DNA of 64,000 nt, taken from the NCBI RefSeq assembly GCF_000263195.1, contig NC_018748.1:4464001-4528000 (forward strand), written 5' to 3'. The DNA is from Emticicia oligotrophica DSM 17448. Its GTDB lineage: Bacteria; Bacteroidota; Bacteroidia; Cytophagales; Spirosomataceae. Under the pieces are notes generated by a model, which did not search any database, was not told the DNA's origin, and saw nothing but the letters and a program-made list of their open reading frames with translations. The translations under genes were made by a program, and so were the position numbers. Shown in pieces: positions 7,155-51,914 of this stretch; within the stretch, counting starts at the first letter, position 1, and each line of letters opens with the position of its first letter.

Positions 7155-7185
7155 GTGCCAAATTTGCAAGAAAATGAATTTACTT

Positions 7186-37216: not shown

Positions 37217-39883
37217 ATGAAGTTAATAATTAGTATTTTAAACTTCTTAATGATTTTTTCATTTTTTTCATCAATGGCACAACATCCCGATGATGTTGTG
37301 AGTGTTCCGAAAGTAAATTTACCAACATATGTTGATACCTATCAATCCGATTTCGTTTTAAAATGGGATACACTTAACCAAGAATCTTTTGTGCATTTTC
37401 AAGTATATCTTAAAGATTCTACATCAAATATTATCATTCATAATTATCAAAATTTAGGGTATGTGGGTAGGGTTAACTTTAGAAATTTAATAGATAACCA
37501 CCTTTATGTTTACAAAATTAGGGCATTTAATTCATTACGTGTAGGCGATACAAAAGAAACAAATTTACAATTTATTAATAAGAAAAGTATAGGAAATCGT
37601 ACACTTAGTGTGCCCATTTTTAATGTAAATAGATTTTGTAAAAATGATAATGTAAATTTTAATTTTACAACAACAGGTGATTGGTTTCCTAACTTTAATT
37701 ACATTTTAGAAATGTCAGATGTTAATGGGAGTTTTGATAATCCGTTTGAGATTATCCAACTTATCTCTGCTGGGAGTTATAATTTTTCACTGAAAAATAG
37801 TGCAATTTCTAAATCTGGATTTTATAAATTTAGGATTAGAGCTTCCTATCCCAACACTTTGTATTTAAGTGAGGAATCAGAACCAATTTATGTTACTGCA
37901 CTTGGTGGTGTAACTACAAGTATATATCCTGAAATTTATGTACCTTCTGGTGGACCGATCATAATATGTAGCCAAAAATCTGTAAACTTATATACCTTTA
38001 CTAATATAGATGATGATTTTACAAAAAGCTATCAATGGTTTCTGAATGATGTTCCAATACAAGATGCTACAAACAGACATTATTCTGCTTCGTTTATATC
38101 TACAACGGCAAAATATAGTGTGAAAGTATCAAAAAATGAATGTGTTGTTGAAAGCCTTCCCCAACAGTTATTTGCAGTTAATTCAAACTCTTCTTATGTT
38201 GTTGCTGACCGAAGAGCCAATTGTTATGATACTCCAAAAGTCCTAAGGTCTAAATATGTAAGTAATTCAGCGGACTACCAGTGGTATAAGAATAATGTAC
38301 TAATACCGAATGCAACAGATTATCACTATACAGTAACTGAAAAAGGAATTTATGAGGTACAAGTTACTGATGTAGGATGTGAATTTGGGAGGGGTAAATT
38401 TGATGTTCAAATTAGCGATTCGTTTGATGCAATGATTTATGCTAAAGATAGTATATTGTGTGGTAATGGAGGGCAAAGAATTGTTATTCAGACAGAAACT
38501 TTGCCAAATGCTAAGTTTCAATGGAAAAGAAATGGTATGAATATTACGGGCGAAAAACAGCAGTATATCTTGGCTGACCAACCCGGAGTTTATTCACTTT
38601 CAATTGAAAATGGATTATGTAAAACCACAACAAAATCCATTAATATTGTTTCGACAAATAATTTAGTACTGAAACTAACCGCTCCGTGGGGTACAACACT
38701 TTGTAACGGTTGGTCTATTTACCTTACAATTGAAAACTTTTTGGATTATACTTACTGCAAATGGTATCGCAATGGGGTATTGATTCCTAATGCTTCTAAT
38801 CAAAAATTATGGCTGAGTGAAGCTGGTAATTATCAGGCTAAAATTGATATAGGGTATTGTGTTGCTGAATCAAATATCATAGTAGTAACTTCATCCCCTA
38901 ATAAAATAAATGCAAAGATAAAAGTTGTTGATGATTCACCATTTATCTGCAATAATTATCCGATTATTATATTCTTTGCTGACGGATATACTGACCAGAC
39001 TATTTTCAATTGGTATAAAAATAATAATTTAATAGCTACAAATTCGCCAAGTTTAACAACAAACGAAGTTGGAACATATAAATTAATCGTGCAGCTTGGA
39101 CAGTGTATTGGGGAAAGTAATGATATAGAATTGAAAATAGATACAAGTAGAATTATACCTGTAGTAGTTGATAATAGTCTCTTTCCAATTGAAGGTAAAA
39201 TAGAGGTCTGTCCAAAGAATTCGATAAGGCTCGAACTAAGGAGTGGGATTACAAATATGGGACTCGAACGGAATCTTCAATGGTTTAAAGATGGAGAAAT
39301 AATACCTAATGAAAACAGATTCGTTTTGTGGGCAGAACAACCAGGTAAATACCAACTTAAAGTTACCGATTTAAATGGGGGATGTAAAAGCCAATCAAAG
39401 GTTTTTGAAATTGAACACATAAATCCACCTAAGGGAATTTTACAATCAGATACAACTTTAATAAATTTAGGACAGCAAGTTCATCTAAATTACGAAATCT
39501 TGGGAGTGGGTAAAACTTACTATAAAATTGCGAATTACTTAGATAGTGTAAGCCACAGTGTAAATTTATCAAAAAGTATTTTTCCTTTAGAAACCAAAAA
39601 TTATAAAATTGAATATGTTACTAACTGGTGTTCGTCAGGTGAAACTTTTGGCAACCATTATGCTAAGGTAATAATGTGTCAAGATAAACACATAATAACT
39701 GAAAAACTTAAAGATAATAATATACTGAATTTTCAGGCCAAAAGTGAAATTAATGCAGTAAATACAATTTTTAGTGGTTCAAAAATCAACTATAGAGCGG
39801 GAAACGCAATTTCGTTATTGCCAGGTTTTGATTCAAATAAAGGATCAATATTCAAGGCGGAAATAGGTGGTTGTGATAATTAA
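37217..39883 (+). CDS. Secreted Ig-like repeat protein with C-terminal coat-hanger domain
   Basis: 888-residue exported protein. A signal peptide (residues 1-21, ending SSMA) is followed by an FN3-like N-terminal region. Six Ig-like repeats then run over about residues 250-740, each with a Trp-centred core such as YQWFLND, YQWYKNN, FQWKRNG, CKWYRNG, FNWYKNN and LQWFKDG, plus a GxYxx(K/Q)V strand. The last ~50 residues form the coat-hanger-like unit INAVNTIFSGSKINYRAG then AISLLPGFDSNKGSIFKAEI, ending GGCDN. That end is shared with the esterases at 19899 and 50049. Probably surface adhesion or display; no enzymatic domain seen. Confidence 0.78.
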   Translation: MKLIISILNFLMIFSFFSSMAQHPDDVVSVPKVNLPTYVDTYQSDFVLKWDTLNQESFVHFQVYLKDSTSNIIIHNYQNLGYVGRVNFRNLIDNHLYVYKIRAFNSLRVGDTKETNLQFINKKSIGNRTLSVPIFNVNRFCKNDNVNFNFTTTGDWFPNFNYILEMSDVNGSFDNPFEIIQLISAGSYNFSLKNSAISKSGFYKFRIRASYPNTLYLSEESEPIYVTALGGVTTSIYPEIYVPSGGPIIICSQKSVNLYTFTNIDDDFTKSYQWFLNDVPIQDATNRHYSASFISTTAKYSVKVSKNECVVESLPQQLFAVNSNSSYVVADRRANCYDTPKVLRSKYVSNSADYQWYKNNVLIPNATDYHYTVTEKGIYEVQVTDVGCEFGRGKFDVQISDSFDAMIYAKDSILCGNGGQRIVIQTETLPNAKFQWKRNGMNITGEKQQYILADQPGVYSLSIENGLCKTTTKSINIVSTNNLVLKLTAPWGTTLCNGWSIYLTIENFLDYTYCKWYRNGVLIPNASNQKLWLSEAGNYQAKIDIGYCVAESNIIVVTSSPNKINAKIKVVDDSPFICNNYPIIIFFADGYTDQTIFNWYKNNNLIATNSPSLTTNEVGTYKLIVQLGQCIGESNDIELKIDTSRIIPVVVDNSLFPIEGKIEVCPKNSIRLELRSGITNMGLERNLQWFKDGEIIPNENRFVLWAEQPGKYQLKVTDLNGGCKSQSKVFEIEHINPPKGILQSDTTLINLGQQVHLNYEILGVGKTYYKIANYLDSVSHSVNLSKSIFPLETKNYKIEYVTNWCSSGETFGNHYAKVIMCQDKHIITEKLKDNNILNFQAKSEINAVNTIFSGSKINYRAGNAISLLPGFDSNKGSIFKAEIGGCDN

Positions 39884-39981: not shown

Positions 39982-40018
39982 AATGATTGATGAAATTAGT
40001 TTCATCAATCATTTTTTT
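39982..40018 (+). terminator. Intrinsic terminator after the Ig-repeat gene
   Basis: A perfect 14-bp stem (39982-39995 with 40000-40013) with a TTAG loop, followed by T7. Confidence 0.92.
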
Positions 40019-40132
40019 ATGAAAATAGAAAAAAAGCGATGCTGGGCGTGTATTAAAATTTAGAGCTAACGTTTTGGACAAAAATTTTTAGTTTTGATTT
40101 TTTTACAAAATAGGACGTGTTTTGCTCTATTT

Positions 40133-41158
40133 TTATTTTATATCTAAAACCACAGTTTTGATTAGCTTTCTATCGTAAGTGTAGGTAATATGAACTAAAC
40201 CATCTCCAGTTTGAATGATGGCAGGATAACTAAACTCACCTTTTTCTTGATTTTCAAGGGTATAAATGTCCTCCCAGTTGTTTCCATCTATTGAACGAGC
40301 TACTTTCAAAACATTTCTTCCATTTGACCATTCTTTGCCAGAAGGAAGAGGATTATAAACCAAAAGAAAAGAACCATTCTTTAAGGTTACGGCATCAATT
40401 CCTGAATTTGGGTTTGGTAGATTTATAGGAGAAAGTTTACTCCATGTTTGACCATTATCTTCAGACCAAGACTGAATGATTTTATTTTGGCGGCTTCTCA
40501 TCAATATTTGTATTTTCCCGTCCTTATGATTCAAAATAGTCGGTTGAATAACGCCATATTCACCGCAATCAATATCAATTTTCTTCCAATTTTTGCCATT
40601 TGCATCAGAAATTTCCATGTGCGAATGCCAAATATCTCCCCTTATACTTTCTGTACTGGAAGGATGCAGTACTGACCCATTTTTTAGCTGAATACTTTTG
40701 TTTCTGATTGGCCCGAGAATATCGTTGGGTAGTCGACTTGGGCTTGACCACGTTTTACCCTCATTATCAGAAGTTTTCACCATTCCCCACCATTCTCTTG
40801 GATTGATACCAACCTTGTAATATAGAAATAATTTTCCACTTGAATTTTTGAAAAGTACTGGATTCCAACAAGCATATTGTTTGCCTTCATATATGCCATC
40901 CGCAATTTTAATGGCTTTAGACCATGTTTTTCCTCTTTCTTGAGTTGCTACCCAAATACAAACCTGTGGGTGATTTTCGTGTTCACCAGCAAACCATGCC
41001 GCCATTAATTTACCTTTGCTCAATTCAACAATTGTTGAAGCGTGGCATGACTTTTCTTCTGGATTTTCGTTGATAAAACCTTCAAAAACTGCTGTAGCTT
41101 GACCTAAACAGTTGAATGTTACAAAAGAAAAAATTGCTAATGTTTTTAATAATTTCAT
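40133..41158 (-). CDS. BNR/sialidase-like exported protein
   Basis: 341-residue exported six-bladed-propeller protein of the sialidase superfamily (BNR_2). A signal peptide (MKLLKTLAIFSFVTFNCLG) is followed by five Asp-box-type repeats, of which KTSDNEGKTWSS (about residue 128) and SWSEDNGQTWSK (about 230) are the best. The N-terminal (F/Y)RIP motif of classical exo-sialidases is not visible, so neuraminidase activity is uncertain. It starts 20 bases after the fucosidase stop on the same strand, so they are probably co-transcribed. Likely role: processing fucosylated or sialylated/uronate-bearing glycans. Confidence 0.8.
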   Translation of the reverse strand: MKLLKTLAIFSFVTFNCLGQATAVFEGFINENPEEKSCHASTIVELSKGKLMAAWFAGEHENHPQVCIWVATQERGKTWSKAIKIADGIYEGKQYACWNPVLFKNSSGKLFLYYKVGINPREWWGMVKTSDNEGKTWSSPSRLPNDILGPIRNKSIQLKNGSVLHPSSTESIRGDIWHSHMEISDANGKNWKKIDIDCGEYGVIQPTILNHKDGKIQILMRSRQNKIIQSWSEDNGQTWSKLSPINLPNPNSGIDAVTLKNGSFLLVYNPLPSGKEWSNGRNVLKVARSIDGNNWEDIYTLENQEKGEFSYPAIIQTGDGLVHITYTYDRKLIKTVVLDIK

Positions 41159-41178
41159 GTAGGGTTGAATAAGAATGG

Positions 41179-42615
41179 TTATTTTTCAAATTTTAATGCT
41201 AAAGCTGGATAAGATTTGTATTTTTCTACTATCTCTTGAGGTAAATTTATAAAAACTTTTTCTCCTTTCTTTTCCCAATTTAAAGAAAGATTTTCACTCA
41301 ATAAAATTACTTTACTACCAGCTTTAGGAATGTTTTTTGACCATGAAATAGAACTTTGTACTTGACTATTTTCTAGAATATTGACAAGTGCATAAAGGGT
41401 GTTACCTTTTCCTTTTGTAAAGAAAACGTTATTTTCGTTGTAGTAATCTGTTACACGTGTACCATAAATAGCTTCACCATTTTTTTCAAGCCATTTACCT
41501 ATTTCTGCTAGTCTAGTTACTTGAATATCAAGCAAAGTACCTTCTGCTGTAGGGCCTACTCCTAATAATAAACTGCCTCCTTTAGCGACTATTTCATTGA
41601 GTGTATGAATAACTTTGGTTGCTGATTTAAAATTATCGTTAGGTACATATCCCCAAGCCCCACCTAAGGTAATACAACTTTCCCATGGAGTATCTGACTT
41701 AGTTTTTGGTATTGATTGTTCGGGTGTTCGGTAGTTCTCGTAAGGGCCATGAACAGTTCTATCAACTATTAATAAGCCAGGTTGGTTGCTTCTTGCCATT
41801 TTGGCAATTTTTGGCATATCAATATGCTGACTGAATGGTGGGATTGGAGCTCCCCATGAACGAACCTCATCATTCACTGTTTCAAGTGGTCGTACCCAAC
41901 CTCCATCTAACCAAAGTATATCAACTTTGCCATATTCTGAAGTGAGTTCGTTTATTTGATTATAGGTGAACTCTTTATATTTATTCCATCTCCAAGGATT
42001 TTTTCTTATGTCATAATTAACATTTCTATCGGGAGTTGCGTATCTATCCCACCAATAATATTGTGTGTGCCAGTCGGGCTTTGAAAAATATGCACCAATC
42101 ATAAAGTTTTCTTTTCTGAAAGCTTCAAAAACATATTTGGCAACATTAGATGTTGGATTATTAGCAAAAGGTCCGCTGGTGATTTTAAAGTCGCTTTCTT
42201 TAGTATCAAACATATTGAAGCCGTCATGGTGTTTGGTAGTAAAAACTACATATTTCATTCCTGCATCTTTGGCAGCCTTGGCCCATGATTCAGGGTTGAA
42301 TTTAGTTGGATTAAAATCTTTACTTAATCCCCAGTACCATTTTTTGTAATCATCATATTTTGAAGTTGAATCTCGATAAATCCAATCTTCATTACAAATC
42401 GACCATGATTCAATAATACCCGGAACAGCATAAAGTCCCCAATGTATTATCATTCCAAACTTTAAATCACGCCAGTTTTCTAATTTTTCTCTTACTTCAG
42501 GCTCGGTTGGATATTGGTAGTTGCTAGAAGTAGGATGTATTGTATTTTGTGCAATAACTGGTTTTGAGCTAATGAACATAATCAATAAAATTGAATAGAG
42601 GAATTTTATTTTCAT
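41179..42615 (-). CDS. Alpha-L-fucosidase, GH29
   Basis: Exported 478-residue retaining fucosidase. A signal peptide (MKIKFLYSILLIMFISS) precedes the GH29 barrel with FGMIIHWGLYAVPG near residue 53, TTKHHDGFNMFDTKESDF around 126, and the nucleophile D237 in VDILWLDGGW. A beta-sandwich end is consistent with the last ~100 residues. First gene of the two-gene unit with the BNR/sialidase-like protein. Substrate specificity (alpha-1,2 versus 1,3/1,4) cannot be told. Confidence 0.93.
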   Translation of the reverse strand: MKIKFLYSILLIMFISSKPVIAQNTIHPTSSNYQYPTEPEVREKLENWRDLKFGMIIHWGLYAVPGIIESWSICNEDWIYRDSTSKYDDYKKWYWGLSKDFNPTKFNPESWAKAAKDAGMKYVVFTTKHHDGFNMFDTKESDFKITSGPFANNPTSNVAKYVFEAFRKENFMIGAYFSKPDWHTQYYWWDRYATPDRNVNYDIRKNPWRWNKYKEFTYNQINELTSEYGKVDILWLDGGWVRPLETVNDEVRSWGAPIPPFSQHIDMPKIAKMARSNQPGLLIVDRTVHGPYENYRTPEQSIPKTKSDTPWESCITLGGAWGYVPNDNFKSATKVIHTLNEIVAKGGSLLLGVGPTAEGTLLDIQVTRLAEIGKWLEKNGEAIYGTRVTDYYNENNVFFTKGKGNTLYALVNILENSQVQSSISWSKNIPKAGSKVILLSENLSLNWEKKGEKVFINLPQEIVEKYKSYPALALKFEK

Positions 42616-42702
42616 TTTTTGATTGGATTAAATTTTAGGGTGAAAATAAAATATTTTAATAATATTGGATTAATAAAAAATTAATTTTAAATAATAATAA
42701 AA

Positions 42703-42741
42703 ATAGCCAATGCTATTTTTATCAAATATAACATTGGCTAT
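42703..42741 (-). terminator. Intrinsic terminator at the end of the amidoligase cluster
   Basis: A perfect 10-bp stem (42703-42712 with 42732-42741, 19-base loop) runs into a T-rich tract on the minus strand. It lies 25 bases after the stop of the ATP-grasp gene. Confidence 0.75.
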
Positions 42742-42766
42742 CAATTGTTTAAAAACTATTTGAATA

Positions 42767-43963
42767 TTAATCTTCAAAGAAAGCACAACTTCCTCCAACC
42801 CAATCAAAATTTTTATTGAAGTTTACGCCAATCATTTCTCCACGACTCAATCTTGCTAGGTTAGTTACTAATTTTGGTCTAGTAGCATTATCTTCCCATA
42901 CAAAAAGCAGCCTGATTTCTGTTTTAATTAAATTTCCATTAACGTCTTTAATTACAGGCTCATATTGTACTTTTCTTTGAATAAGATAATTTTCTTTATC
43001 ATTTATTTTGTCTAAATCTTCTTTCGAAATATTTAGCTTTACGCCACTACCAGCAAATGAAAATAAAGGTTTTAAAACATAGTTTTCTAAATCTGAAGGA
43101 TATGCTTTTAGATCAGATAAGTAGAAACTCTGTGGTATATAATTGCTTTTTAATAATGGTAACGTAAACTTGCTGATACGGAAAAACCAGTTTGGATGCG
43201 TTATCCAAGTGGCTTCAATATCATCAGTCATTTTAAAATTTGTCTCTAAGTTTGGATAGTTTTGTAATAAATCATCAAAAATTAGTCGATTGTAAATTCG
43301 CTTAATTTCAATTGTTTTGCCATTTTTTTCGTAGAAAAGCTGGCGTCCAACTTTTTTGATTTTAGTTATACAAACGGGTTCAATACCCCAAAGTTGGCGT
43401 GTAATTTCGAAATCTAAACGTGTTTTTTGTTGCTCAGGATAAATCTCCAACAAAATAACATTTTCAGGGTTCTCATTGGCTAATAACACTTTTTTCATTT
43501 CATCAACGTAAGAAGACATTGATAAACGATTAAAGTATTGCGTATAATTTTTAGGGTCGTAGAAAAACTTACGGTATTTCTGACCTAAGTACCACTGATA
43601 CCCGAAAAGTGATGGAAAACCTTGTAATTCAATGAGTTGTGGAGTTAGATTGCCCGCTTCATCTTTACAAACCGCAAAATCAATGGCTAGAAAATGCGGG
43701 TGTGAATTTTCATTTGGAACATATTGGTTTACAGGAATGGCTCTTTCGGTTTTTTCCTTGAAATCGGGTTTTAAAATGACTTCAATGATATCGTTTGCGG
43801 CCTGTAAAAGCTTTATTTTAAGGTCTTTGGGAACAAAAACTGGTGTTTCGGCCACTCTGAAATCAAGCTGATTAGGAAAATCTTTGTGAATTTCTGCAAT
43901 CAGGTTTTCGTATTTTTCTTTAGAAAAACTTTCGTTGAATTTATCTCTAATTGAAGGTTCCAT
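42767..43963 (-). CDS. Circularly permuted ATP-grasp ligase (glutathionylspermidine-synthase-like)
   Basis: 398-residue cytoplasmic protein without signal or membrane segments. ATP-grasp features are in the C-terminal half: YVLKPLFSFAGSGV (lysine plus glycine-rich loop, about residue 290), YLIQRKVQYEPVI (hinge, about 325), KTEIRLLFVWE (about 345), and the metal-binding GVNFNKNFDWVGGS near the end. The N-terminal region contains QLIELQGFPSLFGYQ, resembling the glutathionylspermidine synthase/CP-ATP-grasp layout. Predicted to form amide bonds from an acyl phosphate. Its gene begins 13 bases after the amidotransferase stop, so the two are co-transcribed. Specific substrates unknown. Confidence 0.72.
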   Translation of the reverse strand: MEPSIRDKFNESFSKEKYENLIAEIHKDFPNQLDFRVAETPVFVPKDLKIKLLQAANDIIEVILKPDFKEKTERAIPVNQYVPNENSHPHFLAIDFAVCKDEAGNLTPQLIELQGFPSLFGYQWYLGQKYRKFFYDPKNYTQYFNRLSMSSYVDEMKKVLLANENPENVILLEIYPEQQKTRLDFEITRQLWGIEPVCITKIKKVGRQLFYEKNGKTIEIKRIYNRLIFDDLLQNYPNLETNFKMTDDIEATWITHPNWFFRISKFTLPLLKSNYIPQSFYLSDLKAYPSDLENYVLKPLFSFAGSGVKLNISKEDLDKINDKENYLIQRKVQYEPVIKDVNGNLIKTEIRLLFVWEDNATRPKLVTNLARLSRGEMIGVNFNKNFDWVGGSCAFFED

Positions 43964-43976
43964 TATTTAGATTCGA

Positions 43977-44804
43977 TTAAGCAACTGCCAGAATTTGTTC
44001 GGCTGCGTGGTTTAAAAAAGATGGAATCACAATAGATTCAGTGAGCATAATTTTATCGGGGTCGTCGAGTCGTTCAATCATTTCTTCGTACTTTTCTACA
44101 CCATGTTCGCTAACGACAGCAATCATTTTTTCTTCTTGTTTGAAATAACGAAGCATACCTTCTGCATCTGCTTCGGGGTGGAATTGAGTGCCGAATACTT
44201 CATCAGAAAACCTGATTGCCATAATCGCTCTTTCAAGAGGAACATAGTTACGAATTTTCTCTAAACAAAGTACTTTTGCTCCAAATTGATTGATTTTCTC
44301 CCAGTTTGGTTGAATTAATTGATAATCTCTCGAATCTACCGCATAAAATATTTCGGGAAGACCATTAAAAAATGGCTCATTTTCTCCGTCAGAGGTTCTG
44401 TGAATAGGCATCACCCCAAATGAAGTTGAACGCCTCTTGCAGACAATGCCCAAATGTAAATGATTACAAGCAATTTGGAATGAGTGACAAATCAAAAATA
44501 AGTATTTTTTGTTTTCTTGAGTTTGGTTGTGGAGGAAAATTTGGTCAATAAAGTTACCGAATTTGGCTTCCCATTCATGACCTTCTGGTAGTGGATTTCC
44601 AGGACCACCCGTCGAAATGAAAATATCATACTCTTCAATTTCAGGAATTTCGTTTTTCTTTCTTACATCAAAAATATCATACTTCCCCTTGATTCCTTCT
44701 TGAGCAAGAAATTGTCCACAAATCATTTTTATACAACGCATTCCTTCGTTATTGAACCCATTGTACATATCCAAAATGGCAATTTTAATATTTTCTTTCA
44801 TCAC
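43977..44804 (-). CDS. Class I glutamine amidotransferase-like protein
   Basis: 275-residue cytoplasmic protein with an intact GATase1 triad: C106 in LICHSFQ, H209 and E211 in QFHPEAD, plus the oxyanion-type STGGPGNP near residue 65. The ~40-residue C-terminal tail after the triad is helical. In GMP synthase-like enzymes this fold releases ammonia from glutamine; in gamma-glutamyl hydrolases it cleaves gamma-glutamyl bonds. Either role would fit a pathway with a GCS2 ligase next door. First gene of a pair with the CP-ATP-grasp gene; a terminator-like hairpin lies upstream at 44864. Confidence 0.85.
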   Translation of the reverse strand: MMKENIKIAILDMYNGFNNEGMRCIKMICGQFLAQEGIKGKYDIFDVRKKNEIPEIEEYDIFISTGGPGNPLPEGHEWEAKFGNFIDQIFLHNQTQENKKYLFLICHSFQIACNHLHLGIVCKRRSTSFGVMPIHRTSDGENEPFFNGLPEIFYAVDSRDYQLIQPNWEKINQFGAKVLCLEKIRNYVPLERAIMAIRFSDEVFGTQFHPEADAEGMLRYFKQEEKMIAVVSEHGVEKYEEMIERLDDPDKIMLTESIVIPSFLNHAAEQILAVA

Positions 44805-44863
44805 AATAATTAGTTTGAAGTAATCGAATGAACAACGAATACTTTAGTCTGTAAAATAAACAA

Positions 44864-44894
44864 AATAGAATCGAGCATTTGGCTCAATTCTATT
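44864..44894 (-). terminator. Terminator/attenuator between GCS2 and amidotransferase genes
   Basis: A 13-bp stem with one A-C mismatch (44864-44876 with 44882-44894) runs into TTTTGTTTATTTT on the minus strand, 60 bases before the amidotransferase start. Confidence 0.7.
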
Positions 44895-44956
44895 AACATT
44901 AAGGTTTAGTTATTTGCAAAATTAAGAATTTATGAACAAATTTTTTTAAAATTGTA

Positions 44957-46054
44957 TTACAGACCAATCCTAGTTTCGTTTACAATGTAATCAACAACCG
45001 ATTGTAGATTATTTGTTTCCTCAAAAACCCTAAGTTGTCGGTCAGCACCTGTTCCATTTTTCAAGATTTCATGGATGTATTCTACTTCTTTTCTGCTCCC
45101 TAATTCATCTAATACATCATCTACAAATTCCATTAATTCTTCGGCTAAGTGCGAGTAGGGTACTTCTTTTTCCTTACCAAAATCAATCAAATGGCCATGA
45201 ATACCATATCTGGCCGCACGCCATTTATTTTCGCTAATGAGCATTTTGTGATATGGTCTGAAGCTGAGGTTTTGTTGATGCAATTTATAAAGTTTGGCTA
45301 CAATTGCTTGCATTAATGCTGCCAAACATATTGTTTCATCAACACGCATAGGAATATCACAAATTCTAAACTCAATAGTAGGGTAGAATGGATGCAGGCG
45401 TAGGTCCCACCAAATTTTTTTGCCATTATCAATGCAATTGGTTTTTACAAGTACATTCACATAATTGTCATACTCAGCCACACTTGAAAAATAATCAGGA
45501 ATTCCAGTTCTTGGAAATTTATCAAATACTTTTGAGCGATACGATTTAAAACCTGTATTTCTGCCACACCAAAAAGGTGAATTGGTAGAAAGTGCATAAA
45601 TATGAGGCAAGAAATATCGGGCAGCATTTTGAATTTGCATCCCTTCTTGGCGACTAGGAATACCTACGTGTACGTGCAAACCAAAAATGAGGTTTGAACG
45701 AGCCACATCACGCATATCATCAATGAGTTTATCATACCTAGCATCAGCCGTAATTAATTGGTTTTGCCAATCAGAAAAAGGGTGGGTGCCAGCAGCAGCA
45801 ATGTGTAAGTTTTGTTTGGCAGCTAAATCGAACAACATTCTACGTAAATAAGTAACCTCCTCACGAGCTTGTTGGATATTTTCACAAACACTTGAAATCA
45901 TTTCCACCACAGCTTGGTGCATTTCCTGTTTGATTCGTTCTTGTAAAATTACCTGTCCACCCTCCACTAACTTCGCCATGTGAGAACGTAATTCACGCGT
46001 AATTGGGTCAATGGTTTGAAATTCTTCTTCAATTCCTAATGTAAATTGAGCCAT
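44957..46054 (-). CDS. YbdK-type carboxylate-amine ligase (GCS2 family)
   Basis: 365-residue ATP-dependent ligase of the GCS2 fold, related to plant/proteobacterial glutamate-cysteine ligases. Motifs are FTLGIEEEFQ at the N-terminus, GTHPFSDW (about residue 90), FGLHVHVGIPSRQEG (about 125) and the FYPTIEFRICD block (about 226). Relatives such as E. coli YbdK join glutamate to cysteine weakly, so the true acceptor is often another amine. It is flanked by hairpins on both sides and lies between the amidotransferase and the RimK-like ATP-grasp genes. Confidence 0.9.
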   Translation of the reverse strand: MAQFTLGIEEEFQTIDPITRELRSHMAKLVEGGQVILQERIKQEMHQAVVEMISSVCENIQQAREEVTYLRRMLFDLAAKQNLHIAAAGTHPFSDWQNQLITADARYDKLIDDMRDVARSNLIFGLHVHVGIPSRQEGMQIQNAARYFLPHIYALSTNSPFWCGRNTGFKSYRSKVFDKFPRTGIPDYFSSVAEYDNYVNVLVKTNCIDNGKKIWWDLRLHPFYPTIEFRICDIPMRVDETICLAALMQAIVAKLYKLHQQNLSFRPYHKMLISENKWRAARYGIHGHLIDFGKEKEVPYSHLAEELMEFVDDVLDELGSRKEVEYIHEILKNGTGADRQLRVFEETNNLQSVVDYIVNETRIGL

Positions 46055-46118
46055 AGTTTCTTTGGTATTTTATTTTCAATGGGGCGTTTCTTAATTAGTT
46101 GGGTTAGCTTTATAAATA

Positions 46119-46148
46119 AAGCCGTATCTTTTATTGATGACACGGCTT
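46119..46148 (-). terminator. Hairpin between the RimK-like and GCS2 genes
   Basis: A 7-bp GC-containing stem (46119-46125 with 46142-46148) followed on the minus strand by a T/A-rich stretch, 10 bases after the RimK-like stop. Weaker than the others. Confidence 0.5.
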
Positions 46149-46158
46149 CATTTTGAGT

Positions 46159-47160
46159 TTATTTTTTCTTTGCGGCTGCCTTCTTTGCAGTAGCTACTGC
46201 TGGAACAGGTGTGGCTACCGAATCACGAACGAATGTTCCCCATGTACAGTTGTTTTTACCATCCACTTGTTCAATTGCTCTTTCAATGGCCATTTTTGCA
46301 GCATTTTCTACAATCCAATCGAAATTTGTTTGGCCAACAGAATGAATATCTGCATCAGGAGCAGGATTACAGAAGTCTATGGCGTAAGGGATACCATCAC
46401 GAATGGCAAATTCAACAGTATTAAAATCATAACCTAAGGCATGATTTAATTTCAATACGTAGTCGGTAATGGTTGCCATCAACTTTTTATGGGCTTCACC
46501 TGTTGTTTTTGGTTGCGTGGCATATCGTAAATGATGAGGATTTCTTGGTTCATAAGGCATAATATGCACATATTTACCATTGAGGCAATAGCAGCGGTAA
46601 TAGTCTGTAAATTGAATTTCTTCTTGTAAAAGCATGACTAATTGCCCTGTTTCACCATGTTTATGCCACAAATCATCTGGATTGTCAACACGATACACGC
46701 TTTTCCAACCTCCACCCGCATGTGGTTTCATGTAGGCTGGAAAACCGATTTGATTGAACATATAGCCCCAGTCAAGTGGTGCTACTAAGTTTCTGAATGA
46801 TTTTTCGGTTGTATCATCAGGGCGTTCTTTCGATGGTAATAACACCGTTTTTGGCACTGGAACGCCCAACTGAACTGCTAAACAGTTATTGAAAAACTTT
46901 TCATCGGCACTCCACCAAAATGGATTGTTGATAACAGCTGTTCCACAAATTGCAGCATTTTTTAAATATGCACGATAAAATGGAACATCTTGAGAAATAC
47001 GGTCAATAATGACAGCATATTCAGTTGGAACTCCTTGTTCAACTTTATCAATCTTTACTGGCTCGGCTATAATTCCGCTTGGAGCAGTTTTGTTTACTTG
47101 TTCGATAAATGCCCAAGGGAAAGTATCTTCCATTCCGAATAATATACCAATTTTTTTCAT
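46159..47160 (-). CDS. RimK-like ATP-grasp ligase
   Basis: 333-residue cytoplasmic ATP-grasp enzyme. The N-terminal Rossmann-like part (KKIGILFGMEDTFPWAFI, DYAVIIDR-like text) is followed by the ATP-grasp fold: AYMKPHAGGGWKSV (lysine and glycine loop, about residue 150), LLQEEIQFTDYYRCYC (about 205), and the metal site in NTVEFAIRDGIPYAIDFCNPAPD (about 272). The C-terminal 14 residues form an Ala/Lys-rich tail (AVATAKKAAAKKK), unusual for the family. It probably adds an amino acid to an acyl acceptor, or makes a gamma-amide with the GCS2 partner. The hydrolase gene precedes it, with two hairpins in between. Confidence 0.82.
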   Translation of the reverse strand: MKKIGILFGMEDTFPWAFIEQVNKTAPSGIIAEPVKIDKVEQGVPTEYAVIIDRISQDVPFYRAYLKNAAICGTAVINNPFWWSADEKFFNNCLAVQLGVPVPKTVLLPSKERPDDTTEKSFRNLVAPLDWGYMFNQIGFPAYMKPHAGGGWKSVYRVDNPDDLWHKHGETGQLVMLLQEEIQFTDYYRCYCLNGKYVHIMPYEPRNPHHLRYATQPKTTGEAHKKLMATITDYVLKLNHALGYDFNTVEFAIRDGIPYAIDFCNPAPDADIHSVGQTNFDWIVENAAKMAIERAIEQVDGKNNCTWGTFVRDSVATPVPAVATAKKAAAKKK

Positions 47161-47175
47161 GTTATTATTTGTTCT

Positions 47176-47241
47176 GTTCTCTAACCCCGAAAAGAGAACT
47201 GTTTATTTTATTATTAAAAGTGCTTAATAGGGGTAAAGCAC
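47176..47241 (-). terminator. Two hairpins between the hydrolase and RimK-like genes
   Basis: A 7-bp stem (47176-47182 with 47193-47199) and a 6-bp stem (47220-47225 with 47236-47241). The second is followed on the minus strand by a short T-run and can end the hydrolase mRNA. Confidence 0.55.
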
Positions 47242-47290
47242 GTTTTTGATGAAAATGTATTTTTTGCTTGAAAATTCAAGAGAATAACAA

Positions 47291-48007
47291 CTAACTGTAA
47301 AGCGGCATTTTACGCACATATTCCGAAAACATCATCTTCCATAGTGGCCAATCGTGGTTTGCCCAACGCTTTTCATCATACCAGTGATTAATTCCTTTGT
47401 TGGCCAACAATCTCGACATATTTAGATTATCTTCCCTACAAATATCCCAATCAGAAGTACCCAATATAATATTTATGTGGTTATACTTCCAAGATTCGGC
47501 ATTATTCATGAAATCCATAGGCTCATTGAAATAGACATTATCATCATAATATCCTTTCATAAAGCTCTTGATACTAAATGCTCCACTCATGCTAAATAAG
47601 TGAGCCACCATGTCTGGATTTTTAAGAGCAAAGTTCGAACAATGATAACCACCAAAACTACAACCGGCTACTGCAATTCTATGTACATTACATTCTTTTT
47701 GGATGGCAGGAACTAATTCTTCCTTTAAGAAAAGAGTGTAAAGGTTGTAGTTATGAATTTTGATATGTGCTGGTAAGTCTTTTGAATAAAATGTATGAAA
47801 GTCAATACTATCAACATTATAAAGTTTGATTTTACCCGCATCTACTAAATCTGCTACTGTATCAAGCAGTCCGAAGTCTTTATTTTGCATGTAATTTCCC
47901 ATTGAAGTTGGAAACATCAAAATGGGATACCCCCAGTGGCCAGAAATCAAGATGTCAATATCTCGGCCCATGATGTGCGAATAAAACTTGATATGTTTTT
48001 CTTGCAT
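47291..48007 (-). CDS. Alpha/beta-hydrolase (COG4947-like esterase)
   Basis: 238-residue cytoplasmic alpha/beta hydrolase without a signal peptide. Nucleophile S117 lies in AGCSFGGYH; the acid is probably the Asp in GTSDWD (about residue 182) and the base His in NHDWPLW (about 223). Esterase D-like fold. It is the first gene of the minus-strand amidoligase cluster and could hydrolyse an ester/thioester precursor or product. The opposing gene at 48339 encodes another esterase, separated by a 331-base divergent region. Confidence 0.82.
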   Translation of the reverse strand: MQEKHIKFYSHIMGRDIDILISGHWGYPILMFPTSMGNYMQNKDFGLLDTVADLVDAGKIKLYNVDSIDFHTFYSKDLPAHIKIHNYNLYTLFLKEELVPAIQKECNVHRIAVAGCSFGGYHCSNFALKNPDMVAHLFSMSGAFSIKSFMKGYYDDNVYFNEPMDFMNNAESWKYNHINIILGTSDWDICREDNLNMSRLLANKGINHWYDEKRWANHDWPLWKMMFSEYVRKMPLYS

Positions 48008-48338
48008 AAGTTCTAATTACTTTGAATGAAAGTGCAAAATTCGCATTTAGATTTTATAAACAAAAATGGAAAATCAAAATAAAATTCTGATAATAAACTA
48101 CTTATGAAAATTTATATATTTATAAGGTTGATTTTTTTTGATTTTTCGAAATAAAATTTCGTGTAAATTGTATTAGAAAGCATACAATTCTGTAAAATTT
48201 TTAAGAAGCATCTGAAAAAAATACTTGAAATATTAGTCCAATTTTTGCAATGAAACAAATGATTTTTGAAAATTTTATTTTTCAAGGTAAAGGAATTGTT
48301 AATTTTGCTGTATCGTTTATCACAAAAGACCTCAATAA
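48008..48338. other. Divergent intergenic region between the two esterase genes
   Basis: No gene or RNA found. A TAnnTTTG box (TAATTTTG, 48300-48307) precedes the rightward gene by 31 bases; no matching TTG lies at the usual distance. Confidence 0.5.
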
Positions 48339-49139
48339 GTGCAAAAAGTTTCTATCTTCAAAAACCAAAAAATCTTATCTACTTTCTTAAATCGTGAGGT
48401 AGTATTTGATATTGTTCTTCCCCCAAATTATGAGAATTTATCAAACCTTAAAGTCTTATATATGAATGATGGACAAGATTTTGATTCTCTGCAAATAGAA
48501 AAAACACTCAATGATTTATACGGCAGCCATTCTATTGATAATTTTGTATTTGTTGGTTTACACACCAATGAAAATCGCCTGAAAGAATATGGTACTGCTT
48601 CCATACCCGATTATAAAAATCGAGGGAATATGGCTGGTGAATATCGAAATTTTATCCTAACTGAGTTTTTTCCGTTTATCATAGCTAATTACAAAACTTC
48701 TAGTTTAAGTCGAGATAATTATTTTTGTGGCTTTTCATTGGGCGGACTCTCAGCTATGGATTTAGTTTGGGGAAATCCAGATTATTTTTCGAAAGTAGGT
48801 GTTTTCAGTGGTTCGTTTTGGTGGAGAAAGAAGGCTTATGAAGATGGTTATGACGACCACAACGACCGAATTATGCATGTTTTGGTTCGAAATGGAAACT
48901 TTAATGTTGGTCAAAAGTTTTGGTTTGAGTGTGGAACAAATGATGAAAAAGATGACCGAAATGGCAATGGAATAATTGATTCAATTGACGATACCCTTGA
49001 TTTGATTAAAGAACTAGAAGCCAAAGGCTATAAAAATGGGGAGGATGTGACTTATGTTGAAATCAAAGGAGGAGAGCATAATCAACAAACTTGGAGCGAA
49101 GCCATGCCATTGTTTTTGAAGTGGCTATTGCCAAAATAG
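48339..49139 (+). CDS. Esterase family protein (alpha/beta hydrolase)
   Basis: 266-residue cytoplasmic-looking esterase of the Fes/esterase D type. The nucleophile S133 is in CGFSLGGLS, the base is probably His in KGGEHNQQTW (about residue 249), and an Asp/Glu lies in between. Oddity: an EF-hand-like acidic loop, DDRNGNGIIDSIDD (residues about 206-219), resembles a calcium site. Translation starts at GTG 48339; no upstream ATG is available. It is divergent from the amidoligase cluster and may or may not belong to it. Confidence 0.8.
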   Translation: MQKVSIFKNQKILSTFLNREVVFDIVLPPNYENLSNLKVLYMNDGQDFDSLQIEKTLNDLYGSHSIDNFVFVGLHTNENRLKEYGTASIPDYKNRGNMAGEYRNFILTEFFPFIIANYKTSSLSRDNYFCGFSLGGLSAMDLVWGNPDYFSKVGVFSGSFWWRKKAYEDGYDDHNDRIMHVLVRNGNFNVGQKFWFECGTNDEKDDRNGNGIIDSIDDTLDLIKELEAKGYKNGEDVTYVEIKGGEHNQQTWSEAMPLFLKWLLPK

Positions 49140-49254
49140 ATAATGCTCGATTTTAGTAATTATATTCTTTAAATCAGAATAAAGTATAAGAATAATTCTT
49201 TAAGCCTGTGTGAAAGTTTAACATTAAAATATTTAGACATTAATAGCCATATCA

Positions 49255-49953
49255 ATGTCCCAATCAGCTTCTTTTTTTGAAAAACAACTCGAATTCCCAA
49301 GGGTTTTTGCCGCATACAATGAAAAAAGTGGGGTTATCCATGATTTACTGATGGTTAATCAAATTTGTAAGGATAGTTTTGAGTTATTCTTAAGAGCCTT
49401 CAAGAAGGAAAAGATACTTGAAGTTTGGGCAAAAAATCAATTATCTGATAGATTTACCCACCTAAAAACCTACGAATTTAGTGCTACTACTGGTATTTTA
49501 GGTCCCAAAAGACGTTCTGGTGACCTTCAAATTCCCGAAGGTTTTTATGAAATAGATTTTTTTAATCCTCATAGTAAATATCATTTATCACTTAGAATTA
49601 ATTACCCTAACAAATCTGATTTGGTTTTTGCCGATAAATCAAACCCTGGTGATAATATTTTCATTCATGGAGGTAAAGAAACTGTCGGCTGTATTCCAAT
49701 TGGAGATGAAAATATCAAGGAACTATATTTACTAGCATCAAAGGCAAAAAGTGTTGGTTGTAAAATTCAAGTACATATTTTTCCTGTTATGATGAATGAT
49801 TCAAATTACAATTCTATCAGAGAAGAGTATGGTACAAATTCAGAGGTGCTTTTATTCTGGTCTTGGCTCAAAACTGCTTATGAATTCTTTGGGAATTACC
49901 AAAAACTTCCATCAATAGCCTTTGAAAATTCTGGAAATTGTACCGTCGGATAA
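49255..49953 (+). CDS. L,D-transpeptidase (YkuD/YafK-like) protein without signal peptide
   Basis: 232-residue protein with the YkuD active site: H138-G-G in FIHGGKE and C146 in VGCIPIGD. It is closest in look to the YafK branch of murein L,D-transpeptidases. No signal peptide is visible: the N-terminus is MSQSASFFEKQLEFPRVFAA and an in-frame stop codon lies 21 bases upstream, so no longer start exists. Since peptidoglycan is outside the membrane, either export is non-classical or the function differs. Stand-alone gene. Confidence 0.78.
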   Translation: MSQSASFFEKQLEFPRVFAAYNEKSGVIHDLLMVNQICKDSFELFLRAFKKEKILEVWAKNQLSDRFTHLKTYEFSATTGILGPKRRSGDLQIPEGFYEIDFFNPHSKYHLSLRINYPNKSDLVFADKSNPGDNIFIHGGKETVGCIPIGDENIKELYLLASKAKSVGCKIQVHIFPVMMNDSNYNSIREEYGTNSEVLLFWSWLKTAYEFFGNYQKLPSIAFENSGNCTVG

Positions 49954-50048
49954 GTTTATTTATTATTTCGGGCTCGAAAGGCCTAATTAAGCATATTTTC
50001 ATTTTTTTGGCATGTTTTTTCCTTATTTGTTGGTAAAAACATACTATT

Positions 50049-51914
50049 GTGAAGTCTAATAATAAATTATTTTTTGGTTTTTGTTTGCTTACTTTTTACC
50101 TCGTAGGCATTTCCAAGGCTTATTCTCAAGTAATTAATCTTACGTTTCCGAAGGATAATCAAGTTATTCAAAGGGACGATAATGATGAGGCTATCTTTAA
50201 GGTAAGTGGTAAAATCTCTGATGAAAGTCAGCATCTGGTTACGTTGAGTATTCTTAAAAATGGAAGTCCTTTTTATAGACAAACTACTGCTTCTTCTGAA
50301 TTCACTTTTCAGCCTCTTCTCAATGCTGGCAAGTTTGATTACACCTTCATACTCACAATTGATGAAAACATAGAAATAAAAAAAGTATCTCATGTTGCAG
50401 TTGGTGATGTATATTTAATTTACGGCCAATCTAATGCACTTGGTTTAGGAGGAATTGACACTTACCGACCAGCAGAAAATCCATGGATGCGATTTTTTTC
50501 TGTTGCCAATTATGAAAATGGGGATAGCCAATGGGTAATGCCATATAGAACTTCAATTTGGCCTGGCACTGGGGCTATGGAGCTACAAAAGTTTCTTTGT
50601 GAAAGATATAATTATCCAGTTGGTGTTATTGTTGCTTCAGTAGGTGGGGCAGATATAAAGTCATTAAACAAAAGGAACGATTTTAACCCAACCGATATAA
50701 ATACTGATTATGGTAAACTTTTATTACAAACAATTTTTACTGGTGTAAAAGACCAACTGAAATATATCATCTTCAGACACGGTGAAACAGATGCAAATTA
50801 TCAGTTAGAATCAGAATTATATCCTATTGAATTTGAAAAACTCTACAACAATTTAGTTAAAGACTTTCCTAATTTGGTTAAAATTTTTAATGGACAAATA
50901 AACATACTTACAACTAGCAATAAAAAAGCTGGTTTTCTCAGAGATTACCAAAGAAGAACAAAGTATCTTTTCACTAAAGTAACTCCTTTCAGTACAGTTG
51001 GTACTCAAGGCTATGATGGATTACATTATAATTTGAATGGCTATAGCCAGACGGCTTTCGAGTTATCAAGAATAATAGGTAGAGAAGTTTATCATGATAA
51101 TCTCAATGAACAAATTTATTCTCCTGATATTAAAAACGTGCGATGGGATGGACAAAAGTTTATCCTTACATTTGATGAGTCAATGGAAATGAGATTCCCA
51201 AATGATACAACTATTAATAATACACGTTGGTCAATCAGTGATATTATCTATATTGATGGAAAAAATAATTTGGTTCGGAGCGGAGAAGCATTTCAGAATA
51301 AAATCTTTCTCTATGTGAATGATACACTAAATAATTTCAAAAAAATGTCTTACTTGCCAAATGCCTATGGTAATTTTGGTACAAATTTCTATGATGGTCT
51401 TCATTTCAAGAATAAATTTGGTATGAGAGCTTTTAGTTTTGATGAAATGGATATCATAAAAGAAAGTCAAGGTCTTTCATTAAATGCAAAAATTACTACC
51501 AATAACTTTGTTGAACTTAATTGGACTGGAGATATTTCGAAGAATTATCAAATAAAACGTTCAGAGGATAATATAAATTTTACGAACATTGCTGAAGTCA
51601 GAAGTAGTACATTTGTTGATAACAATACTATATTTGGGAAAAAATATTATTATCAAGTTGTATTACTAGAAAACTCAGAGATTAAATCTAATAGTTATGG
51701 TATAAATCTAAATTGTTTATTTGATTTGTCTATTGAAAGATTTCCAGAGGTAGAATATTTAGAAAGTAAGACCTCTATTTTAGGTATATTTACTCTTTTG
51801 GCGTTTCAGAAAATTGACCTAAGAGCTCAAAGTTATGTTAATTTAGAACCAGGTTTTGACGCTAAATTGGGAAGCGATTTTAATGTAGATATTGGGGGTT
51901 GTATAAATAATTAG
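50049..51914 (+). CDS. Secreted SASA-type SGNH esterase with coat-hanger C-terminus
   Basis: 621-residue exported esterase. A signal peptide (ending SKAYSQ, residues about 1-27) is followed by a beta-sandwich beginning NLTFPKDNQVIQRDD, clearly related to the start of 19899-22607. The SASA domain has S128 in YGQSNALG and a DGLHYNLNGY histidine near residue 328. An FN3-like segment (LSLNAKITTNNFVELNWTG, about 475) precedes the last ~50 residues, which carry the coat-hanger-like motif VNLEPGFDAKLGSDFNVDIGGC and end INN. Translation starts at GTG. rsmE starts 3 bases after the stop, so the two may share an mRNA. Likely deacetylates glycans outside the cell. Confidence 0.82.
   Translation: MKSNNKLFFGFCLLTFYLVGISKAYSQVINLTFPKDNQVIQRDDNDEAIFKVSGKISDESQHLVTLSILKNGSPFYRQTTASSEFTFQPLLNAGKFDYTFILTIDENIEIKKVSHVAVGDVYLIYGQSNALGLGGIDTYRPAENPWMRFFSVANYENGDSQWVMPYRTSIWPGTGAMELQKFLCERYNYPVGVIVASVGGADIKSLNKRNDFNPTDINTDYGKLLLQTIFTGVKDQLKYIIFRHGETDANYQLESELYPIEFEKLYNNLVKDFPNLVKIFNGQINILTTSNKKAGFLRDYQRRTKYLFTKVTPFSTVGTQGYDGLHYNLNGYSQTAFELSRIIGREVYHDNLNEQIYSPDIKNVRWDGQKFILTFDESMEMRFPNDTTINNTRWSISDIIYIDGKNNLVRSGEAFQNKIFLYVNDTLNNFKKMSYLPNAYGNFGTNFYDGLHFKNKFGMRAFSFDEMDIIKESQGLSLNAKITTNNFVELNWTGDISKNYQIKRSEDNINFTNIAEVRSSTFVDNNTIFGKKYYYQVVLLENSEIKSNSYGINLNCLFDLSIERFPEVEYLESKTSILGIFTLLAFQKIDLRAQSYVNLEPGFDAKLGSDFNVDIGGCINN

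What the first reader, a model, noticed from the sequence alone, without database searches (positions are those of the whole stretch)
42703..48007. Five-gene cluster of two ATP-grasp ligases, a GCS2 ligase, a glutamine amidotransferase and an esterase
Seen: intact catalytic motifs for two different ATP-grasp proteins (circularly permuted/GspS-like and RimK-like), a YbdK/GCS2 ligase, a GATase1 with complete C106-H209-E211 triad and an alpha/beta hydrolase, all on the minus strand. Known: amidoligase neighbourhoods of this style were catalogued computationally (Iyer, Aravind and co-workers, as I recall), but the products are largely uncharacterised. Inference: they build a gamma-glutamyl or other amide/peptide metabolite. 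This is the best candidate for an undescribed pathway in the window.
Basis: partly seen in the sequence, partly recalled or inferred. Interest (0 to 1): 0.72.

Follow-up and report, generated by a model that had tools for sequence, protein, structure and literature searches.

The report
Unknown Bacteroidota peptide-amide ligase pathway
A set of five neighbouring enzyme genes (three ATP-driven amide-bond builders and two probable bond-cutting enzymes) recurs in the same order in many bacteria of one large phylum and tends to stay in the same genome even when the set is split, so these bacteria probably make and recycle a small peptide-like molecule that has not been identified.

Summary
Five intact minus-strand genes lie at 42767-48007: esterase E1, Ddl/RimK-like ATP-grasp R, GCS2-family ligase C, class-I GATase-fold A, and P, which has no Pfam or NCBIfam match. 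In 296 genomes of the phylum R and P are together in 89 (33.6 expected), A goes with R in 69 of 70, P with C in 87 of 92. In 10 of 10 genomes where P is not beside R, P lies elsewhere. P's predicted fold is nearest glutathione synthases and the ligases YgiC/YjfC, so C plus P resemble a two-step glutathione-type assembly, though the genome has a bacillithiol gene and no GshB hit. An M29 peptidase takes A's slot in three families. Late in the work I found cyanophycin genes beside the set in Chryseobacterium-type and Hymenobacter loci, a hint of nitrogen storage. Best reading: assembly and turnover of a small isopeptide or amide; product unknown. Whether Iyer et al. 2009 listed this set could not be checked (paper not held).

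The parts
47291..48007 (-). E1: PF00756 esterase/hydrolase, no signal peptide seen by eye; likely Ser117-Asp188-His218 triad (roles inferred)
   Evidence: first gene of the conserved order
46159..47160 (-). R: ATP-grasp ligase with a Ddl / ArgX-LysX type fold; the most widespread of R, C, A and P
44957..46054 (-). C: GCS2 / YbdK-type carboxylate-amine ligase (PRK13515), GIEEE motif intact
43977..44804 (-). A: class-I glutamine-amidotransferase-fold enzyme with C106-H209-E211; an M29 metallopeptidase stands in its slot in three families
42767..43963 (-). P: glutathione-synthase / GspS-YgiC-like ATP-grasp ligase, no Pfam or NCBIfam match
48339..49139 (+). E2: second PF00756 esterase, divergent from E1; frequent extra member
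48008..48338 (.). intergenic region between E1 and E2, presumably holding both promoters (inferred); no Rfam family; similar mainly to close relatives

Best explanation
A cluster, probably an operon, for making and trimming a small peptide-like amide. Proposed order (inferred): C activates the side-chain carboxylate of glutamate (or a similar acid) and joins it to an amine or amino acid. P, built like glutathione synthase and the peptide-spermidine ligases, activates the carboxylate of that product and adds an amino acid or amine. R adds a further unit or makes a building block. A hydrolyses an amide bond to trim or recycle the product. E1 and E2 hydrolyse an ester or thioester form. The neighbourhood in some lineages points to nitrogen storage or recycling as the use. 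Shown here: gene identity, unchanged motif residues, conserved order, co-occurrence, predicted folds of P and R, a metallopeptidase in A's slot, cyanophycin genes nearby in two groups. Inferred: substrates, order of steps, that A hydrolyses, and the use of the product.
For: Order E1-R-C-A-P in 60 of 80 named loci, median gaps 51, 30, 44 and 13.5 bases (map); 9 of the other 20 end at a contig edge. 296 phylum genomes: R 108, C 103, P 92, A 70; R with P 89 (33.6 expected), R with A 69 (25.5), C with P 87 (32.0), all four in 50. In 10 of 10 genomes searched where P is not in the stretch around R, P is elsewhere. In 21 fetched of 34 genomes with R, C, P and no A, the R stretch holds neither C nor P in 14, yet all three are in the genome. 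P's fold: all 32 matches with E <= 0.001 are glutathione synthetases and kin, a GspS-like protein, YgiC/YjfC or Cp1B; YgiC and YjfC are called peptidylpolyamine synthetases and peptide-spermidine ligases (PMC12568646 passage and reference title). R nearest Ddl and ArgX/LysX. Variants add peptide enzymes: an M17 aminopeptidase in 24 and a weakly matched ATP-grasp_4 protein in 24 of the 80 named loci; M29 peptidase in A's slot in L128, L156, L157; a CP_ATPgrasp_2-like protein next to R or A in 8 loci. Cyanophycin synthetase, cyanophycinase and a PF01112 beta-aspartyl-peptidase homologue lie beside the set in Chryseobacterium-type loci, the last two also in Hymenobacter.
Against: No substrate, product or phenotype is known. 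R and E1 occur without C and P: 2 genomes ER, 2 R alone, 8 ERA, so one obligate linear route is too simple. C is alone in 9 genomes and the E1 profile alone in 20. C is missing altogether in 3 of the 7 genomes that lack it beside R. Genomes are related, so the P values are not independent tests, and the searches score only a capped number of candidates per genome, with E limits of 0.001 for R and P and 1e-30 for A, C and E1. In many distant genomes the E1 hit is weaker and unlinked and may be a paralogue. A may be a true glutaminase that feeds ammonia to a ligase. TM-scores are moderate, about 0.6. No cyanophycin synthetase or cyanophycinase lies in the window or in 18 close neighbourhoods.
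Confidence: 0.5

Rival explanations
1. Cyanophycin-linked isopeptide metabolism: the set handles beta-aspartyl (or gamma-glutamyl) dipeptides or amides on the way into or out of cyanophycin-like nitrogen stores; ligases save or rebuild isopeptide bonds and A, M17 or M29 enzymes cut them.
For: Cyanophycin synthetase (TIGR02068, 1262 bits, cut-off 850) downstream of P in 10 of the 160 loci L040-L200 scanned, with cyanophycinase and a PF01112 homologue in 8 of these 10; cyanophycinase plus PF01112 upstream of E2 in four Hymenobacter loci. Ammonium transporter in 11 and class-III aminotransferase in 14 of the same 160 loci. A survey says the isoaspartyl dipeptidases of Bacteroidota remain undiscovered (PMC10206079 passages).
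Against: Most of the 160 loci show no cyanophycin gene, nor do the window and 18 close neighbourhoods show the synthetase or cyanophycinase. The Chryseobacterium-type loci are close kin and count as about one event. PF01112 homologues already offer the dipeptidase step where they are present.
Confidence: 0.15
2. A gamma-glutamylation salvage or detoxification route like the E. coli putrescine (Puu) pathway: C puts gamma-glutamate on an amine, other enzymes act on it, and A (PuuD-like) removes the group again.
For: C is a carboxylate-amine ligase and A a class-I GATase-fold enzyme with a full triad. A class-III aminotransferase, whose profile hits include argD and putrescine aminotransferase (all shown hits below their cut-offs), follows P in 14 loci. 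That PuuD has the class-I GATase fold is recalled.
Against: Representatives of all 38 neighbour families that recur in 4 or more loci include no amine oxidase, and of aldehyde-dehydrogenase-like enzymes only a LuxC-type acyl-CoA reductase (13 loci); 34 genomes keep R, C, P without A; three ligases are more than such a route needs.
Confidence: 0.12
3. Protein or cell-envelope modification: R and P add amino acids to a protein or to a peptidoglycan stem, and A, M17 and M29 remove them.
For: R is nearest Ddl and ArgX/LysX-type ligases; PMC4431377 proposes protein targets for R2K-clade ligases (section read), to which R has a weak hit.
Against: No small ORF between the genes is conserved beyond close relatives; P's closest folds act on small peptides; among representatives of 38 recurring neighbour families a Mur-ligase domain occurs only inside cyanophycin synthetase and no other cell-wall gene was recognised.
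Confidence: 0.09
4. Ordinary glutathione (or glutathione amide) synthesis with odd sequences.
For: C is in the glutamate-cysteine ligase family and P's best fold match is glutathione synthase.
Against: A thiol survey finds gshA-gshB only in Cyanobacteria, Proteobacteria, one actinobacterium and Eukarya and predicts bacillithiol for Bacteroidetes (PMC6282198 passages); the window's genome has BshC above its cut-off and no TIGR01380 GshB hit.
Confidence: 0.05
5. No common pathway: genes inherited together by descent without a shared function.
For: My genome searches covered one phylum only, and related genomes share genes by descent.
Against: 156 of 296 genomes have none of the five and 50 have all; order persists while flanking genes change; P stays in the genome when it leaves the cluster (10 of 10).
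Confidence: 0.05

Closest known systems
Glutathione biosynthesis, eukaryotic type (glutamate-cysteine ligase then GSH synthase)
   Same: C is in the GCS2 ligase family and P has the glutathione-synthase fold
   Different: P is 14-15% identical to yeast glutathione synthase over the fold alignment; extra ATP-grasp R, GATase-fold A and two esterases; the genome carries BshC and gives no GshB hit
Glutathionylspermidine synthetase and E. coli YgiC/YjfC
   Same: Same fold (YgiC E 3e-12, YjfC E 1.7e-10); short sequence match around K298 to YgiC (E 0.004)
   Different: P has no Pfam or NCBIfam match and sits with a GCS2 ligase and R
Cyanophycin metabolism (CphA, cyanophycinase, isoaspartyl dipeptidase)
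   Same: These genes adjoin the set in Chryseobacterium-type loci, and the last two in Hymenobacter loci; amide and isopeptide chemistry in both
   Different: R, C, A, P and E1 are not members of these families; no CphA or cyanophycinase in the window or 18 close neighbourhoods
Iyer/Aravind amidoligase gene neighbourhoods (2009)
   Same: From recall of the abstract: non-ribosomal ligases of ATP-grasp and glutamine-synthetase folds linked to peptidases
   Different: Could not be compared: paper not held. Passages or one section of PMC2588565, PMC2922099 and PMC4431377 that I saw do not describe this set
YbdK family (COG2170)
   Same: C matches YbdK structures 1r8g and 1tt4 over most of its length (E about 1e-56)
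   Different: C is in the PRK13515 branch (558.8 bits, cut-off 371); E. coli, among the 14 control genomes, scored below that cut-off

Membership tests
GCS2 / YbdK-type carboxylate-amine ligase (C) | GCS2 domain and GhExE motif | tested here: met
   PF04107 5.7e-62; invariant G7-I8-E9-E10-E11 in 9 sequences; motif from a PMC2588565 passage
GCS2 / YbdK-type carboxylate-amine ligase (C) | ATP-dependent ligation of a glutamate gamma-carboxylate | not testable with these tools
   needs an enzyme assay
Glutathione synthase / GspS-type ATP-grasp (P) | fold | tested here: met
   model pLDDT 93.1; all 32 matches with E <= 0.001 are glutathione synthetases and kin, a GspS-like protein, YgiC/YjfC or Cp1B
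Glutathione synthase / GspS-type ATP-grasp (P) | match to a Pfam family at E 0.001 | tested here: not met
   0 families
Glutathione synthase / GspS-type ATP-grasp (P) | peptide plus amine ligation | not testable with these tools
   needs an enzyme assay
RimK family (R) | score above the rimK_fam curated cut-off | tested here: not met
   26.2 bits against a cut-off of 143.4
ATP-grasp peptide ligases in general (R) | fold and conserved residues | tested here: met
   model pLDDT 89.4; Ddl and ArgX/LysX at E about 1e-13, TM about 0.6; K145-P146, E250, D262, N265 in at least 90% of 41 sequences (roles recalled)
Class-I glutamine amidotransferase (A) | Cys-His-Glu triad | tested here: met
   C106, H209, E211 invariant in 9 and in 17 sequences
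Class-I glutamine amidotransferase (A) | steady partnership with an ammonia-using ligase | tested here: inconclusive
   69 of 70 A genomes have R, but 39 of 108 R genomes lack A, and an M29 peptidase stands in A's slot in three families
Glutathione pathway (whole) | GshB (TIGR01380) in the genome | tested here: not met
   no hit; BshC of the bacillithiol pathway is above its cut-off
Graspetide / RiPP cluster | conserved precursor peptide gene beside the ATP-grasp | tested here: not met
   41 open stretches of 18 aa or more from the intergenic regions tested against L022-L119; matches beyond close relatives are, by position, the start of R or its antisense, or short weak hits
Cyanophycin pathway | cyanophycin synthetase and cyanophycinase beside the set | tested here: inconclusive
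   CphA in 10 and cyanophycinase in 12 of the 160 loci L040-L200 scanned; none in the window and 18 close neighbourhoods; rest of G000 not tested

The most novel reading that the evidence does not exclude
Much of the Bacteroidota makes its own core isopeptide metabolite: a gamma-glutamyl (or beta-aspartyl) pseudo-tripeptide or peptidyl-polyamine, assembled by a GCS2 ligase, a glutathione-synthase-fold ligase with no named family and a Ddl-like ligase, with its own hydrolases for turnover, used for redox balance or as a small-molecule nitrogen store beside bacillithiol and, in some groups, cyanophycin.
Probability: 0.22. Interest if true: 0.85.

Novelty: new variant of a known kind. Interest (0 to 1): 0.64.

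Why it matters
If the set makes one product, a core small molecule of a large and ecologically important phylum is still unknown. The co-occurrence gives a short, testable gene list (E1, R, C, A, P, E2), natural variants that show which steps can be swapped, and a branch of the glutathione-synthase fold without a family name. The cyanophycin neighbours touch a stated gap: the isoaspartyl dipeptidases of Bacteroidota (PMC10206079).

Tried and rejected
Structured RNA: no Rfam match at gathering thresholds in 40000-50500. Precursor peptide (RiPP): rejected. Mobile element: R and P have no tblastn match in 72,556 plasmid records and R none in 50,697 phage records at E 1e-5. Alpha-L-fucosidase, BNR protein and L,D-transpeptidase neighbours: linked only in close relatives, so not counted as parts. 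Histidine ammonia-lyase, FloA, luciferase-like and other single-lineage neighbours: treated as lineage-specific. The symporter-P frame in L166 was seen in one fetched genome and not used. Literature: ten searches ran; no listing seen described this set.

Rows dropped and limits: two weak R hits (G090, G252) were left out. In one search the strict script missed R in L061, E1 in L081 and L119 and P in L086, which one search shows, and set L040 aside as a contig edge; by my reading, 65 of 80 hold all five. Of the R genomes I fetched 40 R neighbourhoods plus 40 other stretches around C, A or P; the 18 came, and 13 of these 18 hold all five. Of 11 genomes one (L117) has P beside R, so the count given is 10 of 10. 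In one search C is in 8 of 11 genomes: beside R in 4, elsewhere in 4 of the 7 that lack it beside R, absent in 3. The M29 model was built from the same three proteins; the independent evidence is Pfam. Only 1 of 2 CPG proteins tested passes the Pfam cut-off, and the ATP-grasp_4 match is just below its cut-off.

Full report
The genes. The window is part of a 5.2 Mb genome, G000. Named relatives found with R include Emticicia, Runella, Dyadobacter, Hymenobacter, Chryseobacterium and Maribacter. At 42767-48007 five minus-strand genes follow each other: E1, R, C, A, P. Pfam and NCBIfam give an esterase for E1, a GCS2 ligase of the PRK13515 branch for C, a class-I GATase for A, weak ATP-grasp hits for R and nothing for P. 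Family alignments show the motif positions unchanged. A divergent second esterase, E2, stands at 48339-49139 on the plus strand.

Folds. AlphaFold2 models of P (pLDDT 93.1) and R (pLDDT 89.4) were compared with the PDB by Foldseek. All 32 matches of P with E at or below 0.001 are glutathione synthetases and their kin (among them homoglutathione synthetase and nematode synthetase-like effectors), a GspS-like protein, YgiC, YjfC or the fungal ligase Cp1B; yeast glutathione synthase with gamma-glutamyl-cysteine bound ranks first. R is an ordinary ATP-grasp ligase; the 50 matches shown are mostly D-Ala-D-Ala ligases and ArgX/LysX. TM-scores are about 0.6, so the fold is shared and the substrate is not implied. 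YgiC and YjfC are called peptidylpolyamine synthetases and peptide-spermidine ligases (passage and reference title in PMC12568646).

Conserved order. Among 38 related genomes R is found in 23. Of 18 neighbourhoods fetched from these, 13 hold all five genes in order and 12 of the 13 also E2. In 60 of these 80 a strict script finds E1-R-C-A-P in order on one strand, with median gaps of 51, 30, 44 and 13.5 bases; 9 of the other 20 end at a contig edge. Outer neighbours change between genera.

Co-occurrence. In 296 genomes sampled from the phylum, R is in 108, C in 103, P in 92 and A in 70. R and P are together in 89 against 33.6 expected, R and A in 69 against 25.5, C and P in 87 against 32.0. 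The E1 profile hits 125 genomes, 105 of the 108 R genomes and 20 genomes that have none of the other four; in many distant genomes that hit is weaker and unlinked and may be a paralogue. All five are in 50 genomes and none in 156. Genomes share ancestry, so the probabilities overstate independence. A cleaner sign is persistence without linkage. Of 34 genomes with R, C and P but no A, I fetched 21 R neighbourhoods: 5 hold C and P, 2 hold C, and 14 hold neither. In 10 of 10 genomes searched because P is not in the stretch around R, P is elsewhere; C is elsewhere in 4 of the 7 that lack it there.

Variants. Chryseobacterium, Elizabethkingia, Kaistella and a few others put an M17 aminopeptidase and a further ATP-grasp-like protein upstream of E1 (24 of 80 loci each). 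Three families carry R-C-M29 peptidase-P, with a metallopeptidase in A's slot (L128, L156, L157). Another group carries a CP_ATPgrasp_2-like protein between R and A, often with a further esterase, with C elsewhere or not found. Some lineages place amidohydrolases or an amidase beside A or P. Builders appear in place of builders and cutters in place of cutters. This is why I read A as a hydrolase, which remains inference.

Nitrogen context. One representative of each of the 38 neighbour families that recur in 4 or more loci was annotated (9, 29). Among them are a cyanophycin synthetase (TIGR02068, 1262 bits, cut-off 850), a cyanophycinase (TIGR02069, over its cut-off) and a PF01112 beta-aspartyl-peptidase homologue (below the NCBIfam cut-off). 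In Chryseobacterium-type loci the order is P, cyanophycin synthetase on the other strand, cyanophycinase, PF01112 (8 of the 10 loci with the synthetase); in four Hymenobacter loci cyanophycinase and PF01112 lie upstream of E2. An ammonium transporter recurs in 11 loci and a class-III aminotransferase behind P in 14. In the window and 18 close neighbourhoods there is no cyanophycin synthetase or cyanophycinase, one PF01112 homologue (L034), and a homologue of the aminotransferase at window 7180-8343, far from the cluster. A survey states that the isoaspartyl dipeptidases of Bacteroidota remain undiscovered (PMC10206079 passages), and a Dyadobacter species paper reports cyanophycin genes in strain CECT 9623, whose locus here is L052 (PMC11573002 passage). 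This is a lead, not proof: the Chryseobacterium-type loci are close kin, and I could not test genome-wide co-occurrence.

Function. C and P resemble the two successive ligases of glutathione synthesis. The genome has BshC over its cut-off and no GshB hit, and a survey of thiol genes predicts bacillithiol for Bacteroidetes (PMC6282198 passages). The best reading is a small isopeptide or amide other than glutathione, with R adding a third unit or a building block and the hydrolases trimming. R and E1 can occur without C and P, so R must have some use of its own or with other ligases.

Novelty. Ten searches of the open library gave no listing that describes this gene set; I saw listings, and passages or one section of PMC2588565, PMC2922099, PMC4431377, PMC6282198, PMC10206079, PMC11573002 and PMC12568646. 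The 2009 Iyer/Aravind survey, which may list it, is not held. I therefore call it a new variant of a known kind: an uncharacterised amidoligase gene neighbourhood with an unusually wide spread in one phylum.

Noticed in passing
L060:15225-17855 and 9 similar loci; L096, L101, L108, L119: Cyanophycin synthetase, cyanophycinase and PF01112 peptidase genes beside the cluster in Chryseobacterium-type loci, and the last two in Hymenobacter.
   Followed up: partly
window 7180-8343 (+): A class-III aminotransferase 64% identical to the one that follows P in Dyadobacter and other loci; in the window it lies about 35 kb away.
   Followed up: no
window 40133-42615 (-): An alpha-L-fucosidase and a BNR-repeat protein follow P and stay beside the cluster in some close relatives.
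   Followed up: partly
window 49255-49953 (+): A YkuD-type L,D-transpeptidase near E2, at a variable distance in close relatives.
   Followed up: no
A fusion or a lost stop.
   Followed up: partly
L182:2786-6118, L184:7637-9466, L185:12634-15937, L161:5457-6926: Amidohydrolase-3 family enzymes (and an AtzE-like amidase) beside A or P in lineages where the cluster is split or rearranged.
   Followed up: partly
G226, G272, G298 and others: A second, weaker E1-profile hit away from the cluster, perhaps a paralogue, in genomes that also carry R.
   Followed up: no
window 37217-39883 (+): An 888-aa protein with a signal-like start and repeated QW(Y/F)xN-type units by eye; not searched.
   Followed up: no
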